A stretch of 64,000 bases of DNA from Patulibacter minatonensis DSM 18081 (GTDB taxonomy: Bacteria > Actinomycetota > Thermoleophilia > Solirubrobacterales > Solirubrobacteraceae). The notes beneath the pieces were generated by a model, which was not told the DNA's origin, did not search any database, and was given only the letters and a program-made list of their open reading frames with translations. Positions 30,593 to 41,711 of this stretch are shown here, one piece after another (position 1 is the first letter of the stretch; every line of letters starts with the position of its first letter). The position numbers were made by a program, and so were the translations under genes. The DNA lies in NCBI RefSeq assembly GCF_000519325.1, contig NZ_KI912613.1, forward strand, positions 1,651,252-1,715,251. Reading direction: 5' to 3'.

Positions 30593-31135
30593 TCAGCCCG
30601 CCAGCACCGCGTCCGCGTCGACCACCGTCGCGTAGGCGCTGCCGAGCGCGCCCAGGAACGCGGCCTGGACGTCGGCGGCGGCGACCTTGCGTCCCGCGTG
30701 CTCGAGCGCGGGGCAGGCGCAGGCATCGGCGACGACCGTGACGTCGTACCCGAGGTCCGCGGCGGTGCGGACGCTCGCGTCGACGCACATGCTGGTCATC
30801 ATCCCGGCGACCACGAGCTCGCGGACGCCGTCGTGCCGCAGCCGGGCGTCGAGGTCGGTGTTCAGGAAGGAGTTCGGCGCCTCCTTCACGACGACCTCCT
30901 CGTCCTCGGTCGGCGCGACCGACGGGTGGATCTCGGCGCCCGGGGTGTCCTTCACGAGGAAGCCGCCGGACGCGTCGCCGGCGTGCCGCACGTGGAAGAC
31001 CGGGTCGCCGGCGTCGCGGAACGCCGCGAGCAGCCGGGCGGCGTTCGCCGCGGCCGCGTCCGGGCCCTCCAGCGGCAGCGCACCGCCCGGGAAGTAGTCC
31101 TGCTGGATGTCGATCAGGAGCAGCGCGCGGGTCAT
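30593..31135 (-). CDS. Isochorismatase-like cysteine hydrolase
   Basis: A 180-residue member of the cysteine hydrolase family that includes nicotinamidases, N-carbamoylsarcosine amidohydrolases and ureidoacrylate hydrolases. The triad is visible: D9 in LLLIDIQQDY, Lys in EVVVKEAPNSF, and Cys in GMMTSMCVDAS. It lacks the metal-binding DxHxxxH of nicotinamidases (HPSVAPTEDE occupies the region), so it is more like the CSHase/YcaC-type branch. The ATG is preceded by TAGGCT at six bases, a leaderless signature. No obvious pathway partner. Confidence 0.88.
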   Translation of the reverse strand: MTRALLLIDIQQDYFPGGALPLEGPDAAAANAARLLAAFRDAGDPVFHVRHAGDASGGFLVKDTPGAEIHPSVAPTEDEEVVVKEAPNSFLNTDLDARLRHDGVRELVVAGMMTSMCVDASVRTAADLGYDVTVVADACACPALEHAGRKVAAADVQAAFLGALGSAYATVVDADAVLAG

Positions 31136-31224: not shown

Positions 31225-31277
31225 AATGTGTAAATACGGATCAAATATTTGCACATTGAGACGTCCGGCGCTATGGT
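31225..31277 (+). promoter_or_regulatory. AT-rich promoter with overlapping operator
   Basis: A sharply AT-rich island. AATGTGTAAATA (31225-31236) and TATTTGCACATT (31246-31257) form an inverted repeat with one mismatch. TTGCAC (31249-31254), a 17-base spacer and TATGGT (31272-31277) resemble a sigma-70 promoter, so the repeat covers the -35 region. No long gene follows for about 900 bases. Confidence 0.6.
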
Positions 31278-31284
31278 TCTCGCC

Positions 31285-31380
31285 GTGGTCCGCTCCCCCG
31301 ACACCCGACCGACGTGTGCGCTGCGGTGGCCGACGTGCGGTGGAGCGGGCCACGCTCCTCGATGTCGGTGCGCCGCGTAG
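31285..31380 (+). CDS. Possible 31-residue Cys-rich peptide
   Basis: A GTG seven bases after the TATGGT box opens a 31-codon frame containing four Cys (residues 11, 18, 26, 28) and several Arg/Pro. The position relative to the promoter fits a leaderless start. Nothing else supports translation; the transcript could instead be a leader or non-coding RNA. The next 260 bases to 31641 hold no gene I can defend. Confidence 0.25.
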   Translation: MVRSPDTRPTCALRWPTCGGAGHAPRCRCAA

Positions 31381-31641
31381 GAGTCGGCCGCAGGGCCGGG
31401 GGATCGAGCGCGGCGTGTCGTGAGGGGCGCGCCGCCGTCTGCACCCCGACCTCCTCGGCCCCCGGCCGTCCTCCTTCACCCCGCGTGCTCCACGGTGCCG
31501 GACGCCGAGGTCACCGCCCACCGAGACCGCCCCGACGGGTACTCCGCCGCGGCGGTGGCGGGCGGCCCACGGCGACCGCGCCGGGGGCCCGCACGCCCGG
31601 CGTCCGCCGGGCCGCACCCACGCCCACAGGAGACGAACGAC

Positions 31642-31692
31642 ATGCACACCGCAGTGCCGCCCACCGACCACCGATTCCCCGCCGACCGATGA
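31642..31692 (+). CDS. Possible 16-residue leader peptide
   Basis: An AGGAG Shine-Dalgarno sequence (31628-31632) precedes ATG 31642. The 16-codon frame ends in a TGA that overlaps the next ATG (ATGA), a layout suggesting translational coupling to the 84-residue frame downstream. No sequence family. Confidence 0.3.
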   Translation: MHTAVPPTDHRFPADR

Positions 31693-31943
31693 GCCAGGGC
31701 CGCCGTCCCCGCGGAGCGTGGCTCGGCGGGGTCCGCGACGGCGACGACCTCGTCGCCGGCCGCCCCCTCCGTGACCGGCCGGACCGGACGACCGGCCGGT
31801 ACTTCGACGACGACGAGCCGGCGGAGTCCGTCGTCCGGGCCTCGCGCTCACGCCGCGAGGGCTGGAACCGCCACGTGCCCTCCGGCCCCGCGGTCCGCGC
31901 CACCCCGCGCGGGCGGGCCCGCAGGGCCAGAGCCGCCGACTGA
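31689..31943 (+). CDS. Hypothetical basic protein, 84 residues
   Basis: A small Arg/Asp-rich frame starting MSQGRRPRGAWLGGVRDGDD and ending in an Arg/Ala tail. It has no hydrophobic segment and no family I recognise. Its start overlaps a 16-codon frame with a good Shine-Dalgarno sequence. Support is context and codon bias only; the 248 bases after it contain no further gene. Confidence 0.4.
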   Translation: MSQGRRPRGAWLGGVRDGDDLVAGRPLRDRPDRTTGRYFDDDEPAESVVRASRSRREGWNRHVPSGPAVRATPRGRARRARAAD

Positions 31944-32191: not shown

Positions 32192-33460
32192 GTGCACCCA
32201 GACCAACGTCCGAGGACCCGCCGTCGGAGGACGGTCGTCCTGTCGCTCGCCATCGCGCCGGTCGTCGCCGCGTCGGCGGTCGGCGAGGCCTCCGCAGCGT
32301 CGCTGTCGAGCTGGTCGGCGTCGCCGGCGACGTTCTTCCAGGACTCCTTCGAGGCGTCCACGACGACCGTGGCGAACGGCCGCGTGTGGCAGGTCTCGTT
32401 CGACCGGCTGACGAAGCCGGTGCTGCGCTCGCGGCGCCTGGCGGACGGCCGGGCCGCGGCGGTGCCGGTGCGGATCCCGCGCCCTGCCGGCGGCGAGCTG
32501 GTCTCGGCCGGCGACTCCCTGCTCGAGGACGAGGCGGACGGGCGGGACACGACCCTGTTCGTGGCCGGCCGTCGGGGCTTCGTGGCCGGCGACTGGTGCA
32601 CCGCCCAGAACGACGACGGCGACTGCGAGGCCTCGCGCGGGTTCGAGGTCCAGTTCGACGTCCGGACCGGGAAGGTCCTGCGGTCGTCCCGGCCACGCAG
32701 GTCCCCGGTCCTCGTCGGGGGGACCCGCGTCTCGTACCTCGAGGTCCCGAAGGCCGGATCGATGCTGCTCCGCGACGCCGTCACGCGGCGCGTGGTGCGC
32801 CGCCTCCCGCGGCAGGCACGGGAGGTCCAGGGCGCGGGGCCGTTCGTCTCCTGGAAGGACCCCGACGCCTACGAGCGCGAGAACGGGCGGCGGGGCGAGG
32901 TCGACATCGGGCCCGGTTGGAGCGCGATCCACGTCCGCAGGCGGGCCACCGGGCGCGTCGTCTACGACCTGCGCGAGAGCACCGTCATGAACGCGATCCA
33001 GCGCCGCGGCGCGGGCGGTCAGGACGCGGACCTGCGGCCCGACGGGTCGCTCCGGCTCGCGATCGACCTGGACTTCGAGCGTCCGTTCCGCCCGGTCGTC
33101 GTCGACGGGCGGGGTCGCGTCCTGCGGGTCTCGGAACGGCCGATGCGGAAGCCCGGGCAGTTCTGGTCGGAGATCCGAGGCGGTCGCGTGTCGCTCCAGG
33201 TCTCGACGAACTTCGGGACGTGCGGGCCCGAGGCGGGCTGGCTCACCGACGTCGGTGGTCATCACGGGACGATCTTCCGGGACCTGCCCCACAGCGGCGG
33301 CTACGTGATCTCCTCCGCACCGGAGCTCCTGACGCCCACGACGATGGCCTGGGGCGAGCGGCCGACCGACCCGGAGATCCCCCGGGCGCGCTCCCGCGTC
33401 CGCGTCGGCCGCGACCTCCGTACGCTGCCGTTGACCACGAAGGACCGCCCGCGCTGCTGA
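32192..33460 (+). CDS. Secreted hypothetical protein, 422 residues
   Basis: Starts at GTG 32192 behind a CAGGAG Shine-Dalgarno sequence, followed by an Arg-rich n-region and hydrophobic signal peptide (TVVLSLAIAPVVAASAVGEA). The mature protein is beta-rich with repeated VRxVRRLP and GRVWQVSFDR strands, reminiscent of propeller-type surface proteins; paired Cys (GDWCTAQNDDGDCEA and FGTCGPEAG) may form disulfides. I do not recognise a family. It resembles in style the other secreted propeller protein in this window but without clear similarity. Confidence 0.75.
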   Translation: MHPDQRPRTRRRRTVVLSLAIAPVVAASAVGEASAASLSSWSASPATFFQDSFEASTTTVANGRVWQVSFDRLTKPVLRSRRLADGRAAAVPVRIPRPAGGELVSAGDSLLEDEADGRDTTLFVAGRRGFVAGDWCTAQNDDGDCEASRGFEVQFDVRTGKVLRSSRPRRSPVLVGGTRVSYLEVPKAGSMLLRDAVTRRVVRRLPRQAREVQGAGPFVSWKDPDAYERENGRRGEVDIGPGWSAIHVRRRATGRVVYDLRESTVMNAIQRRGAGGQDADLRPDGSLRLAIDLDFERPFRPVVVDGRGRVLRVSERPMRKPGQFWSEIRGGRVSLQVSTNFGTCGPEAGWLTDVGGHHGTIFRDLPHSGGYVISSAPELLTPTTMAWGERPTDPEIPRARSRVRVGRDLRTLPLTTKDRPRC

Positions 33461-34585: not shown

Positions 34586-35266
34586 TCATCGGTGCGAGAT
34601 GCGGCGGACCAGGAGGTCGCCGACGAGCTGGAAGAGCTGGACGATCACGACGAGCAGCACGACGGTCGCGAGCATCACGTTGCCGTCGTAGCGGTTGTAG
34701 CCGTAGTCGATGGCGAGGGCCCCGAGGCCTCCGCCGCCGACGGTGCCGGCCATCGCGGAGAAGCCGACGATGGCGACGAGCGTGATCGTCAGGCCGCCGA
34801 CGAGGCCGGGCGCGGCCTCGGGCAGGACGACCTTGCGGACGGTCTGGGTGCGGGACGCGCCGGCGGCGCGCGCCATCTCGACGAGGCCGCGGGGGACCTC
34901 GCGCAGGGCCTGCTCGACGACCCGCGCGTAGAACGGCGTCATGCCGACGACGAGCGGCACGATCACGGCGCTCGTGCCCAGCGACGTGCCGACGACGAGG
35001 CGCGTGAACGGGATGATCGCGGCGAGCAGGACGATGAACGGCACGGACCGGCCGATGCCGACGACGAGGCCGAGCAGGGCGTTGACCGGCGGCAGCGGCC
35101 GCAGGCCGTCGCGGCCGGTGGTGTGGAGCAGGACGCCGAGCAGCAGGCCCAGGAGCCCGGTGATCGCGGTCGAGATCACGACCATCTGCAGGGTCTGGCC
35201 GAGGGCGGGCTCCAGGAGCTCCCAGATCTCGTCCCAGGGCGTCGCGTCGGCGAGGGGGAGGGTCAT
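34586..35266 (-). CDS. metI: Methionine ABC transporter permease
   Basis: A 226-residue inner-membrane permease with five or six helices. LGQTLQMVVISTAITGLLG and the EAA loop EMARAAGASRTQTVRKVVLPEA, which contacts the ATPase, are characteristic of MetI. FIVLLAAIIPFTRLVVGTS and GGGGLGALAIDYGYNRYD also match the family. It overlaps metN by four bases (ATGA). Confidence 0.95.
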   Translation of the reverse strand: MTLPLADATPWDEIWELLEPALGQTLQMVVISTAITGLLGLLLGVLLHTTGRDGLRPLPPVNALLGLVVGIGRSVPFIVLLAAIIPFTRLVVGTSLGTSAVIVPLVVGMTPFYARVVEQALREVPRGLVEMARAAGASRTQTVRKVVLPEAAPGLVGGLTITLVAIVGFSAMAGTVGGGGLGALAIDYGYNRYDGNVMLATVVLLVVIVQLFQLVGDLLVRRISHR

Positions 35267-36420
35267 GCGCGCTCCTCGGTCGGGGTGGGGGCCGCCGGCA
35301 GGTCCGTCGCCTCGGCCGGATCGCCCGCGGGCTCGCCGGTCGGGTCGCGGTCGGTGGCTGCGACCGCCCCGGGGTCCTCGCCCGCAGCCGGCGGGGCGGC
35401 GACGAGGTCCGCGACCGCCGCCGGCGGGGCGTCGGCTGCGGTCTCGTCCAGCCGGGCCGCGTGGAGTCCACGGCCGCGGAGGCGCTCCGCGAGGTCGATC
35501 GTCGGGTCGTCGAGGGCGACGGTGACGTGGCCCGCGGGCCGGCCGTCCACGGCCTCGACGCTCGCGCCGAGCAGCGCGACCCGCGTGCCGAGCTCGTGCT
35601 CGAGGCGCCCGATCCACGCGGGGTCGACGTCGTCGGCCGTGTACGTCACGCGCCACGACTGCCCGCCGCCGGGGGCCACGGCCACCGGTCGCGCCGGCAC
35701 CAGTCCTCGGCCGAGCGCGGAGTCCGGGTCGGTCACGAGCGCGCCGACGTCGCCCTGCTCGACGATCCGGCCGTCGCGCAGCAGGGCGACCTGGTCGCAG
35801 ACGTCGCGGACGACCTCCATCTCGTGGGTGATCAGCAGGATCGTCAGCCCGAGGTCGTCGCGCAGGCCGCGCAGCAGCGCGAGGATCGAGCGCGTCGTGT
35901 CGGGGTCGAGGCCCGAGGTCGCCTCGTCGGACAGCAGCACGTCGGGGCGCAGCGCGAGCGCCCGGGCGATCCCGACGCGCTGGCGCTGGCCGCCCGAGAG
36001 CTGCGCCGGGTGGGTCCGGGCGTGGTCCTCCAGCCCGACCCGGGCGACGAGCTCGGCGACGCGCGTCCGCCGCTCGGCGCGGGGGACGCCGGCGATCTCG
36101 AGCGGCAGCGACACGTTGCCCGCGACCGTCCGCGACGACAGCAGGTTCGCCGCCTGGAAGATCGTGCCGATCCGCCGGCGTGCGGCCTGCAGCTCGCGGT
36201 CGCGCAGCGCGGTCAGGTCCTGCCCCCCGACGACGACCCGGCCGGACGTCGGGCGCTCGAGCAGGTTGACGCACCGGGCGAGGGTGCTCTTCCCCGCGCC
36301 GCTCGGCCCGATCACCCCGGCGATCCGTCCCGCGTCCACGCGGAGCGACACGGCGTCCAGCACGACGTGGTCCCGGCCGTTGCGACGGAACGCCTTGGTG
36401 AGGGTGTCGACCTCGATCAT
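35263..36420 (-). CDS. metN: Methionine ABC transporter ATP-binding protein
   Basis: A 385-residue ATPase. Walker A GPSGAGKST, signature LSGGQRQRVG, Walker B VLLSDEATSGLD and switch LITHEMEVV are intact. A C-terminal NIL-type regulatory domain (SWRVTYTADDVDPAWIGRL onward), which in the E. coli protein binds methionine to shut down transport, is followed by an unusual 60-residue Ala/Pro/Asp/Glu-rich tail with no family counterpart. It is the first gene of the operon. The upstream gap carries a TTTAC-C-GTAAA palindrome over the likely -10 region. Confidence 0.95.
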   Translation of the reverse strand: MIEVDTLTKAFRRNGRDHVVLDAVSLRVDAGRIAGVIGPSGAGKSTLARCVNLLERPTSGRVVVGGQDLTALRDRELQAARRRIGTIFQAANLLSSRTVAGNVSLPLEIAGVPRAERRTRVAELVARVGLEDHARTHPAQLSGGQRQRVGIARALALRPDVLLSDEATSGLDPDTTRSILALLRGLRDDLGLTILLITHEMEVVRDVCDQVALLRDGRIVEQGDVGALVTDPDSALGRGLVPARPVAVAPGGGQSWRVTYTADDVDPAWIGRLEHELGTRVALLGASVEAVDGRPAGHVTVALDDPTIDLAERLRGRGLHAARLDETAADAPPAAVADLVAAPPAAGEDPGAVAATDRDPTGEPAGDPAEATDLPAAPTPTEERA

Positions 36421-36431
36421 CCGCCACGCAA

Positions 36432-36442
36432 TTTACCGTAAA
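36432..36442. promoter_or_regulatory. Palindrome in metN promoter
   Basis: TTTAC-C-GTAAA lies 11-22 bases before the metN ATG in an AT-rich patch. The minus-strand TACGGT within it could be the -10 element, so a regulator binding here would block transcription. No SAM riboswitch is recognisable in the short leader. Confidence 0.5.
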
Positions 36443-36553
36443 GCGGATCCGAATTTGATTCCGGGCTCGCGGAGGGGTACGTTCGGCCTCGCACGCCGCC
36501 CGTCCGCCTCGCACGCGGACCGGCGCGCCCCACCCCGTCCGGAGACCGCGCCG

Positions 36554-37385: not shown

Positions 37386-38405
37386 TCAGGCCGCCGCGAG
37401 CGCGAAGACCCGCGACAGCCGCGCGACGGCCGCGCGACGCTCGACGGGGTCGGGCGTGTTCGAGATCGAGATCACCTCGTCGGCGCCGGACGCGGCGACC
37501 GCGGCCTCGAGGCCCGCCCGCACCGTCTCCGGGTCGCCGACGACGTCGGCGCGCGTGTCGATGTGCTGCTCCTCGGCCGCGCGCTCCTCCGCGGTCCAGC
37601 GGTGCGCGAGAGCGTCCTCCACCGACATCAGCGCGGCGTGGTGGCCGAGCCGTGCCTGCGCCATCCCCAGGTGCATCGGGGCGGCCAGCGCGCGGGCGTG
37701 CTCGTCGTCCTCGCCGACCATCACCTTGACCGCGAGCATCGCGTGCGGACGGTCCCCGGGGCGCGCCGGGACGAAGTTCTCGCGGTACGCCCGCAGCGCG
37801 TCGGCGGCGCCCTGCGTGTTCGTGTGCGCCGCGAACCCGTAGCGGAGGCCCTTGCGCGCGGCGGTCGCGGCGGAGCCCGCGCTGGACCCGAGCAGCGTCA
37901 CGGGCGGCAGCGGCACGTCGGTCGGTGCGGCGCGGGCGGTCGCCAGCGGGTGGCCCTCGGGCCACGGGTGGACCTCGCCGAACGCCAGGAGCTCGTCGAG
38001 CTGCTCCTCGAACCCCGCGCCGTGCGCGTTGTCGACGGGACGCCCGAACGCCCGGACGATCGCGTCGTCGATCGCGCCCTCCGAGCGCCCGATGCCCAGG
38101 TCGATCCGGCCGGGGAACAGCGCCTCGAGCGACCGGAACTGCTCGACCACGTGGATCGGCCGGTGGTTCGGCAGCAGCATCCCGCCGGAGCCGACGCGGA
38201 TGCGGCTCGTCGCGCCGGCGAGCGTCCCGAGCAGGACCTCCGGCGCCGAGATCGCGACGCTGCCGATCGCGTGGTGCTCGGCGACCCAGAAGCGGTGGAA
38301 GCCGAGCTCGTCGGCGGCGCGGGCCAGGGCGATCGCGTCGTGGAACGCGTGGCCGGGGGCTCCGCCGCGTCGCGTCGGGGCCTGGTCGAGGATCGAGAGG
38401 AGCAT
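37386..38405 (-). CDS. Luciferase-like flavin monooxygenase (MsnO8-type)
   Basis: A 339-residue single-component of the bacterial luciferase-like (LLM) superfamily using reduced FMN or F420. Features of the MsnO8 branch: LSILDQAPTRRG at the N-terminus, FHRFWVAEHHAIGSVA, RIRVGSGGMLLPNHRPIHV and GRIDLGIGRSEG. Members oxidise diverse small molecules; a nearby methionine-type transporter and two further LLM enzymes suggest organosulfur or sulfonate substrates, which is inference. It is divergent from the next LLM gene across a region with two palindromes. Confidence 0.9.
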   Translation of the reverse strand: MLLSILDQAPTRRGGAPGHAFHDAIALARAADELGFHRFWVAEHHAIGSVAISAPEVLLGTLAGATSRIRVGSGGMLLPNHRPIHVVEQFRSLEALFPGRIDLGIGRSEGAIDDAIVRAFGRPVDNAHGAGFEEQLDELLAFGEVHPWPEGHPLATARAAPTDVPLPPVTLLGSSAGSAATAARKGLRYGFAAHTNTQGAADALRAYRENFVPARPGDRPHAMLAVKVMVGEDDEHARALAAPMHLGMAQARLGHHAALMSVEDALAHRWTAEERAAEEQHIDTRADVVGDPETVRAGLEAAVAASGADEVISISNTPDPVERRAAVARLSRVFALAAA

Positions 38406-38474
38406 GTGGAGGTCGGTCGTGGACGGGCCGGGGTCCCGCCGCCGGAGGGCCGCGAAGCCCCGTGGTGGCGGAAA

Positions 38475-38504
38475 CCCGATCGGGATTCCCTACGGTCACC
38501 GTAG
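38475..38504. promoter_or_regulatory. Palindromes between divergent LLM genes
   Basis: CCCGATCGGG (38475-38484) and CTACGG-TCA-CCGTAG (38490-38504) sit centrally in the 125-base gap between divergent monooxygenase genes, suited to joint control by one regulator. The nearby MarR (41778) is a candidate. Confidence 0.6.
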
Positions 38505-39478: not shown

Positions 39479-39516
39479 CGCCGCCGACGACGCCCCGGGA
39501 GGGGACCCGCGCATGA
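39475..39516 (+). CDS. Possible 13-residue coupling peptide
   Basis: ATG 39475 overlaps the upstream stop and its own TGA overlaps the next ATG (ATGA at both ends). The frame encodes MTPPTTPREGTRA and contains the GGGAGGGG Shine-Dalgarno sequence of the next gene. It could keep ribosomes on the message between the two monooxygenase genes, or be chance. Confidence 0.3.
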   Translation: MTPPTTPREGTRA

Positions 39517-40832
39517 CCGCCCCCCGCAAGCAGGTCCGCCTGGCCGCCCACTTCCCGGGCGTGAACAACACGACGGTCTGGGGCGACCCCGCCTCGGGCA
39601 GTCACATCGACTTCGCCGGGTTCGCGCACCTCGCGCGGACGGCCGAGCGGGCGATGTTCGACCTGTTCTTCCTCGCCGAGGGCCTCAGCCTCCGCGAGCA
39701 CGCCGGGCACCTCCACGACCTCGACGTCGTCGGCCGCCCGGACGCGATGACCGTCCTCTCGGCACTGGCGGCGGTCACCGAGCGGATCGGCCTCGCGGCG
39801 ACGCTGACGACGACCTACCACGAGCCGCTCGAGGTCGCCCGGCAGCTCGCGACCCTCGACCACCTCTCCGACGGGCGCGCGGCCTGGAACCTCGTGACGT
39901 CCACCGACGCGGTGTCGGGCGCCAACTTCCGCCGCGGCGCGTACCTGCCCTACGACGGGCGCTACGACCGGGCGGGCGAGCTGCTCGGGCTGGCCGACCG
40001 CCTGTGGCGCGACGGCCCCGGTCCGTTCCGGGCGGAGGGCCGCCAGGTCGACCTGCACGGCGAGTGGGACCTCGCGTCCCCGCCGCAGGGCCGCCCCGTG
40101 ATCCTCCAGGCCGGCGACTCCGACGCCGGCCGCGAGTTCGCCGCCCAGCGCGCCGACGCCGTCTTCACCCGGCACGCGAGCGTCCCCGAGGGCCAGGCCT
40201 TCGTCCGCGACGTGAAGGGCCGGCTCGCGAGGTACGGCCGCCGGCCCGAGGACCTGCTCGTCCTCCCGGGCGCGACGTTCGTCCTCGGCGACACCGACGA
40301 GGACGCGCGGGAGCAGGCCGCCCACGTTCGTCGCCAGCAGGTCTCCGGGCCCACGGCGATCGTCTTCGCGGAGCAGCTCTGGAACCGCGACCTCTCCGCC
40401 TACGACCCCGACGGCCCGCTCCCCGACGTCGACCCCGTCGAGGGCGAGATCACGATCGCGCCGGGCAGCATCCCGGCCCGCGCCTTCGCCGGGAAGCGCC
40501 ACGAGACCGTCGAGCAGCTGCGCGCGCTGGCGGCGAGGGACGACCTGTCGCTCCGGGACGTGATGGTCGAGACCCGCGCGCGGCACTCGTTCGTCGGCTC
40601 GCCCGAGACCGTCGCCGACGAGATCGACCGCCACGTCCAGCTCGACGCCTGCGACGGCTTCATCCTCGTCCCGCACATCACGCCGGGCGGGCTCGACGCG
40701 TTCGCCGATCGCGTCGTGCCGCTGCTGCAGGAGCGCGGGTCGCTGCGCACCGCGTGGGAGGGCGGCACGCTGCGCGACCGGCTCGGCCTGCCGCGCTGGT
40801 CCCCGGCGGAGTCCGCGGTCCGCGCGGACTGA
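39513..40832 (+). CDS. NtaA/SnaA/DszA-family flavin monooxygenase
   Basis: A 439-residue FMNH2-dependent monooxygenase of the nitrilotriacetate/dibenzothiophene-sulfone/pristinamycin monooxygenase family. Diagnostic motifs: FDLFFLAEGL, YHEPLEVARQLATLDHLSDG, RAAWNLVTSTD, NFRRGAYLPYDGRYDRA and PVILQAGDSDAGREFAA. Family members cleave C-N or C-S bonds and need a separate flavin reductase, which I do not see here. A GGGAGGGG Shine-Dalgarno sequence precedes the ATG. Together with metNIQ it suggests scavenging of sulfur from organic compounds. Confidence 0.93.
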   Translation: MTAPRKQVRLAAHFPGVNNTTVWGDPASGSHIDFAGFAHLARTAERAMFDLFFLAEGLSLREHAGHLHDLDVVGRPDAMTVLSALAAVTERIGLAATLTTTYHEPLEVARQLATLDHLSDGRAAWNLVTSTDAVSGANFRRGAYLPYDGRYDRAGELLGLADRLWRDGPGPFRAEGRQVDLHGEWDLASPPQGRPVILQAGDSDAGREFAAQRADAVFTRHASVPEGQAFVRDVKGRLARYGRRPEDLLVLPGATFVLGDTDEDAREQAAHVRRQQVSGPTAIVFAEQLWNRDLSAYDPDGPLPDVDPVEGEITIAPGSIPARAFAGKRHETVEQLRALAARDDLSLRDVMVETRARHSFVGSPETVADEIDRHVQLDACDGFILVPHITPGGLDAFADRVVPLLQERGSLRTAWEGGTLRDRLGLPRWSPAESAVRAD

Positions 40833-41663: not shown

Positions 41664-41711
41664 CGGATATCGGATAGGAAATATGCGGTCCGGCGGGGAT
41701 TCCGGTACCGT
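41664..41711 (+). promoter_or_regulatory. AT-rich region with CGGATA repeats before MarR gene
   Basis: CGGATA is repeated at 41664 and 41671 in a patch much richer in A/T than its surroundings, followed by a TACCGT box at 41706-41711. This would give a leader of about 60 bases for the MarR gene at 41778. Likely promoter; operator role is a guess. Confidence 0.4.

What the first reader, a model, noticed from the sequence alone, without database searches (positions are those of the whole stretch)
31225..31943. Regulated AT-rich promoter with no conventional gene behind it
A 33-base inverted repeat (12-9-12, one mismatch) overlaps TTGCAC-N17-TATGGT, one of the best promoter-like arrangements seen in the window, in a G+C trough. 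Downstream are only a 31-codon four-Cys frame at leaderless distance, a 16-codon frame with a good Shine-Dalgarno sequence and ATGA overlap to an 84-codon frame. It may drive a small RNA, a peptide, or a coupled leader-peptide gene.
Basis: partly seen in the sequence, partly recalled or inferred. Interest (0 to 1): 0.6.

Follow-up and report, generated by a model that had tools for sequence, protein, structure and literature searches.

The report
Sulfur-regulated leader with cysteine mini-gene
A soil bacterium seems to use a sulfur-controlled switch to make an RNA that starts with a tiny cysteine-containing reading frame folded into a hairpin, probably a cysteine-sensing control element of a known general kind that has not been tested here.

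Summary
In detail: the 33-base inverted repeat, the promoter-like hexamers, the 31-codon four-Cys frame at leaderless distance and the 16- and 84-codon frames are all present. The genome is a Patulibacter. The repeat is centred on a palindrome (about AAAnCGGATCCGnTTT) that also lies upstream of metN, sfnB, cysJ, metY and peroxiredoxin genes in this genus; with the uORF site left out of the matrix it scores second in 64 kb, behind metN, and above every shuffle. So this is very probably a sulfur-regulon promoter. The likely regulator is a CymR-like Rrf2 protein encoded just upstream of cysK. The 3' three quarters of the 31-codon frame is conserved at 81% in one other Patulibacter, with the same hairpin (20 of 20 pairs) and both end Cys codons; there a sulfite-dehydrogenase gene and metNIQ follow. 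It is found in 2 of 8 Patulibacter genomes and convincingly in no other of 146 family genomes. Best reading: a sulfur-regulated leaderless Cys leader/attenuator in front of the 84-codon gene. A sulfur-regulated small RNA is the main rival. The attenuation step is inferred, not shown.

The parts
31225..31257 (.). 33-base A+T-rich inverted repeat (12-9-12), the extended operator
31233..31248 (.). 16-bp core palindrome AATACGGATCAAATAT, sulfur-regulon site
   Evidence: 24.65 bits with a matrix that does not contain it
31249..31254 (+). -35-like TTGCAC, inside the right arm of the repeat
   Evidence: consensus match only (scan did not list it)
31272..31277 (+). -10-like TATGGT, 7 bases before the GTG
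   Evidence: consensus match only
31285..31380 (+). leaderless-type uORF, 31 codons, four Cys (codons 11, 18, 27, 29); first and last Cys codons shared with the relative
31311..31381 (+). conserved element: 3' part of the uORF including its stop
   Evidence: (55 of 68 aligned bases identical in G007)
31323..31376 (+). long hairpin inside the uORF, 20 pairs
   Evidence: (z -3.55 and -2.73 in the two species)
31381..31641 (+). G+C-rich stretch between uORF and next start; no conservation above shuffled control
31628..31632 (+). Shine-Dalgarno-like AGGAG
31642..31692 (+). 16-codon frame, overlaps the next frame by ATGA
31689..31943 (+). 84-codon frame, probable protein-coding gene without known relatives

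Best explanation
This is the 5' end of a sulfur-regulated transcription unit. Step 1 (well supported): the inverted repeat is an extended operator of the Patulibacter sulfur regulon. Step 2 (inferred): a CymR-like Rrf2 repressor, encoded directly upstream of cysK, binds it when cysteine is plentiful and covers the -35 element. Step 3 (inferred from spacing, same arrangement in the relative): on derepression RNA polymerase starts at or next to the GTG at 31285, giving a leaderless mRNA whose first 31 codons are the uORF. Step 4 (structure supported, function inferred): between the first conserved Cys codon and the end of the frame the RNA forms a long hairpin; ribosomes slowed at the Cys codons when Cys-tRNA is short would keep the hairpin open in a different way from ribosomes that finish at the UAG, and so tune expression of what follows. 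That is the 84-codon gene here and a SorA-like sulfite dehydrogenase gene in the relative. It would work like the mycobacterial cysteine-responsive leaderless attenuators, with a transcriptional layer added.
For: Operator: a matrix built from nine sites without the uORF site ranks it second in 64 kb (24.65 bits; metN promoter 26.06; MsnO8/LLM divergent promoter 17.5; maximum of 20 shuffled windows 16.7). Of 24 places found by the palindrome in 8 Patulibacter genomes, 8 lie upstream of metN, sfnB, cysJ or metY, 2 upstream of peroxiredoxin, 1 is this promoter. The region is a sulfur-acquisition cluster: MetNIQ, MsnO8, NtaA/DmoA. Regulator candidate: Rrf2 gene followed by cysK and a cysE-like frame, full-length match to the CymR model at 6.9e-23. 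Element: 81% identity over 68 aligned bases in G007 (E 3.7e-9 in that genome), start and stop kept, both indels in the frame (9 and 3) multiples of three while those in the following 260 bases are not; hairpin with all 20 pairs kept and 5 one-sided pair-preserving changes. In G007 the downstream genes are SorA-like, metN, metI, metQ. Precedent: cysteine-responsive leaderless short ORFs in mycobacteria (passages read in PMC9031893; PMC4633059).
Against: No expression data. Only 2 of 8 genus genomes carry the element, and the gene behind it differs between the two. The Cys codons are not contiguous, and only two of four are shared; G007's two Cys are not more than chance (P 0.18). The stretch beyond the uORF is no more alike than shuffled sequence (60% against 59%), so no antiterminator or anti-SD is conserved. 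In-silico occupancy folds gave opposite-looking or unclear effects on the start region in the two species. The orthologous promoter in G007 has only a weak site, and the cymR-like gene's own promoter has none. Other members of the regulon lack such a uORF. The CymR model's curated cut-off is not reached (81 against 195 bits).
Confidence: 0.5

Rival explanations
1. A sulfur-regulated small RNA. The conserved product is the roughly 100-nucleotide hairpin RNA itself, acting in trans; the overlapping reading frame is incidental and the genes behind it are whatever happens to be there.
For: Conservation stops at the end of the hairpin/uORF; downstream genes differ between the two species; substitutions are spread over codon positions (5, 4, 4, counted by hand from the alignment); hairpin z-scores -3.55 and -2.73.
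Against: In-frame GTG at leaderless distance, stop codon and frame-keeping indels in both species; no terminator-like site found there; no Rfam family.
Confidence: 0.25
2. A plain sulfur-regulated promoter for the 84-codon gene (or, divergently, for the isochorismatase-family gene at 30593-31135), with no regulatory role for the uORF or hairpin.
For: Strong operator; 84-codon frame has a coding-like GC pattern; isochorismatase start lies only about 90 bases from the repeat on the other side; other regulon members have simple short leaders.
Against: It leaves the 81% conserved uORF/hairpin segment unexplained, in a stretch whose surroundings have diverged to chance level.
Confidence: 0.17
3. 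A functional four-Cys micropeptide (for example metal- or thiol-binding).
For: Four Cys in 31 codons (P 0.005).
Against: Only two Cys are shared with the relative, and amino-acid positions are no better kept than silent ones.
Confidence: 0.04
4. Chance arrangement with no function.
For: 2 of 8 genus genomes only.
Against: Operator score above all shuffles, conserved segment E 3.7e-9.
Confidence: 0.04

Closest known systems
Cysteine-responsive leaderless short ORFs (polycysteine uORFs) of mycobacteria, Canestrari et al. 2020 (paper not held; seen only through passages in PMC9031893, PMC4633059 and PMC9094748)
   Same: Leaderless-type start, short frame with Cys codons near its end, in front of sulfur-related genes in one of the two species, low third-position G+C bias of the frame
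   Different: Cys codons not contiguous; long hairpin lies inside the frame; gene behind it not conserved; much narrower distribution; combined with a palindromic sulfur operator
CymR-CysK cysteine repressor system of Bacillus and Staphylococcus (PMC2869319 passages)
   Same: Rrf2 regulator whose translation holds no Cys, encoded next to cysK; targets are sulfur-acquisition genes; site covers the promoter
   Different: Distant sequence (below the curated CymR cut-off); its site was not compared base by base with CymR's; no binding data
RsrR, Rrf2 regulator of Streptomyces (PMC5015018 passages)
   Same: CGGAT half-sites in an inverted repeat
   Different: 11-3-11 spacing with CGGAT...TCCG far apart; ours has overlapping halves around GATC; RsrR has a 2Fe-2S cluster

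Membership tests
Mycobacterial cysteine-responsive leaderless attenuators | Transcript starts at the start codon of the short ORF | tested here: inconclusive
   GTG 7 (window) and 6 (G007) bases after a TANNNT hexamer; no 5'-end data
Mycobacterial cysteine-responsive leaderless attenuators | Contiguous Cys codons | tested here: not met
   CRC in the window, isolated Cys in G007; feature taken from passage
Mycobacterial cysteine-responsive leaderless attenuators | Located upstream of sulfur/cysteine genes | tested here: inconclusive
   G007: SorA-like and metNIQ; window: 84-codon gene of unknown function
Mycobacterial cysteine-responsive leaderless attenuators | Downstream expression responds to cysteine through the ORF | not testable with these tools
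   needs reporter fusions
CymR-type sulfur regulon | Rrf2-family regulator linked to cysK | tested here: met
   PF02082 E 6.1e-28, cysK directly behind it, cysE-like frame next
CymR-type sulfur regulon | Regulator reaches the curated CymR equivalog cut-off | tested here: not met
   81 bits against 195
CymR-type sulfur regulon | Shared site upstream of sulfur genes | tested here: met
   8 of 24 places upstream of metN, sfnB, cysJ, metY
CymR-type sulfur regulon | Regulator binds the site | not testable with these tools
   no binding data; own promoter has no strong site
Known riboswitch or RNA family | Rfam match | tested here: not met
   0 at gathering score in 64 kb; only chance-level matches in the region

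The most novel reading that the evidence does not exclude
A two-layer cysteine switch in Patulibacter: a CymR-like operator decides whether the transcript is made, and a leaderless Cys uORF whose own codons form the controlling hairpin decides how far it is used; the module is portable, sitting before different genes in different species.
Probability: 0.33. Interest if true: 0.58.

Novelty: new variant of a known kind. Interest (0 to 1): 0.45.

Why it matters
If right, cysteine-sensing leaderless uORFs reach beyond mycobacteria into a distant actinobacterial genus, do not need contiguous Cys codons, and are combined with a transcriptional cysteine repressor. It also gives a first outline of a sulfur regulon, with site and candidate regulator, in a genus where my searches of the open-licence library listed no paper on the subject.

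Tried and rejected
Homology of the whole 350-base leader: I first took it as conserved (early reading), but a shuffle control gave 59% mean identity against 60% observed, so I dropped it. BLAST hits of the uORF segment in G014, G015 and G019: the G015 and G019 hits lie in desaturase-like coding frames (named by my reading of the translations, no family search), and in G014 only 42 bases align, with no promoter or uORF around them. Tail-motif hits elsewhere in the genus: those that keep the last 14 bases have no uORF context. Covariance-model hits in 22 other family genomes (E 0.0017 or worse): contexts read for 11 loci, none with promoter or uORF; of the other weak rows, G015 and G019 are the desaturase hits and the rest were not read; the weak rows were not read either. 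Alternative-structure modelling with ribosomes blocking parts of the leader: SD more hidden with a late-stalled ribosome in the window, no clear effect in G007; too unstable to use. Cys uORFs in front of other regulon genes: none comparable in 10 leaders (for the three cysJ leaders a fixed 130 bases was read). SUOX paralogue of this genome at 4.08 Mb: no second copy of the element in this genome.

Full report
What was checked. The inverted repeat is not a chance product of base composition: it is the only 12-base-arm, at most one-mismatch repeat with at least 7 A/T in its left arm (spacer 3 to 15) in the window, and none appears in 20 Markov-shuffled windows. The promoter hexamers are modest by the sigma-70 consensus; the scan tool listed none in 25-40 kb.

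Where it lies. The window is part of a 5.52-Mb single-contig genome. A relative in the same genus carries the shared element, and its contig is labelled Patulibacter, so the window is from Patulibacter. Around the finding is a sulfur-acquisition cluster: metNIQ on the minus strand (metN 35263-36420), an MsnO8-family monooxygenase (37386-38405) and an NtaA/DmoA-family monooxygenase (39513-40832) (metI and metQ are named by reading, without a family search).

The operator. Comparing the uORF promoter with the metN promoters of the window and of G007 suggested a shared CGGATC core. Searching this genome for AAWWCGGATYNNNT gave four places and no control matches: the uORF promoter, the metN promoter, a site in front of an SfnB-like gene, and one inside a coding sequence. 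A palindromic version, AAAWYKGATCMRMTTT with up to 2 mismatches, gave 36 rows at 24 places in 8 Patulibacter genomes, against 7 control rows. I read the context of 18 of the 24. Three sites lie before metN (G000, G005, G007), three before cysJ (G000, G007, G003), one before sfnB, one before metY, two before peroxiredoxin genes, and one is this promoter; one lies before a cytochrome oxidase gene and the other six read lie near unrelated or unnamed genes, one of them on an A+T-rich contig of G002 that looks foreign. The six not read are all on G002 contigs.

To test the uORF site itself I built a weight matrix from ten other sites (metN four times, sfnB, cysJ twice, metY, peroxiredoxin twice; the identical cysJ site of G007 was left out and one metN site, of G001, was taken by eye), then left out the window's metN site as well. 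The three best places in the 64-kb window are the metN promoter (26.06 bits), the uORF promoter (24.65) and the divergent promoter of MsnO8 and a second monooxygenase-like frame (17.5). The best place in any of 20 shuffled windows is 16.7. A mild circularity remains, because the search pattern was loosened with the uORF site in view; the cysJ, metY and peroxiredoxin sites were not known when it was written. It covers the -35 element, which suits a repressor.

The regulator. This genome has two Rrf2 genes above the Pfam cut-off. One is followed by cysK and a serine-acetyltransferase-like frame (the latter named by reading). Its protein matches the CymR model over its full length (E 6.9e-23) but well below the curated cut-off (81 against 195 bits), and cysK is confirmed; CymR of Bacillus (2y75, organism recalled) and of Staphylococcus are among its solved relatives. 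In those species CymR acts with CysK to repress cysteine genes (PMC2869319 passages). That this protein binds the palindrome is inference; its own promoter has no good site.

The leaderless frame and its hairpin. BLAST in 41 genomes found one convincing relative of the segment, in G007 (E 3.7e-9). There too a GTG stands 6 bases after a TANNNT hexamer, and the frame ends in the same RCAA-stop. Over 31311-31381, 55 of 68 aligned bases are identical; over 31285-31380 it is 69 of 93. From -35 to the start it is only 16 of 35, so promoter letters beyond the hexamers are not conserved. The two indels inside the frame are 9 and 3 bases long; the seven in the next 260 bases are 7, 2, 1, 2, 4, 1 and 4. 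Thirteen substitutions in the 3' part fall on codon positions 1, 2 and 3 about equally (5, 4, 4; counted by hand), so the peptide sequence as such is not what is kept. What is kept is the pair of outer Cys codons, the stop, and a long hairpin between them: z -3.55 in the window and -2.73 in G007 for the 61-base stretch, though folding a longer 117-base piece gave no excess stability in either (z -1.10 and -0.32) and other partners in the window. All 20 pairs form in both, five of them with a pair-preserving change on one side and none with a double change. With two sequences this cannot prove a structure. A covariance model finds only these two in 8 Patulibacter genomes and no convincing further copy in 146 family genomes (stricter filters). 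A stricter pattern scan of one genome for each of 84,980 species found only the G007 record (the window's own record may be hidden there).

What follows it. In G007 the same strand carries a SorA-like sulfite dehydrogenase gene, then metN, metI and metQ, metN with its own site. In the window the same strand carries the 16- and 84-codon frames and then a secreted-protein-like frame (32192-33460), while metNIQ is turned round. The 84-codon frame has GC by codon position 0.80/0.68/0.93 and a codon score of 0.23 bits per codon, positive but below known neighbours (0.69 to 1.10, which trained the score). It has no relative in Pfam or NCBIfam, in 120 other family genomes or among plasmids. The stretch from the uORF to it is no more like G007 than shuffled sequence.

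Reading. A sulfur-regulon promoter is the firm part. That it makes a leaderless mRNA beginning with a Cys leader frame is likely. That ribosome speed on its Cys codons controls the next gene is the best functional guess, by likeness to the mycobacterial leaderless polycysteine frames (passages; the primary paper is not held). It differs in having separate Cys codons, a hairpin within the frame, and no fixed gene behind it. The last point, and the end of conservation at the end of the hairpin, keep a sulfur-regulated small RNA alive as the main rival. Literature listings showed nothing on such an element in Patulibacter; the library holds open-licence papers only.

Noticed in passing
window 38472-38487: Third-best operator-like palindrome in the window (17.5 bits), in the divergent promoter of the MsnO8 gene and a second monooxygenase-like frame; a probable further member of the sulfur regulon.
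   Followed up: partly
window 36420-36455: The metN operator lies 19 bases before the start codon, so metN itself may be a leaderless mRNA.
   Followed up: no
window 41667-41682: Weaker operator-like match (about 11 bits, below the best of shuffled windows) between an SDR gene and a MarR-family gene.
   Followed up: no
G000:C1:4430878 (L133): Rrf2 (CymR-like)-cysK-cysE-like gene order; candidate master regulator of sulfur genes in Patulibacter.
   Followed up: partly
G000:C1:4081918-4082985 (L066, L079): Sulfite-dehydrogenase gene 67% identical to the one behind the element in G007, at a different place in the window's genome.
   Followed up: partly
G002 contig C390 (L099), and probably C340, C381 and C521: C390 is A+T-rich sequence in an otherwise G+C-rich Patulibacter bin; the matches on C340, C381 and C521 look alike, but those contigs were not read; probably contamination.
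   Followed up: no
window 30593-31135: Isochorismatase-family gene divergent from the finding; it could share the operator.
   Followed up: no
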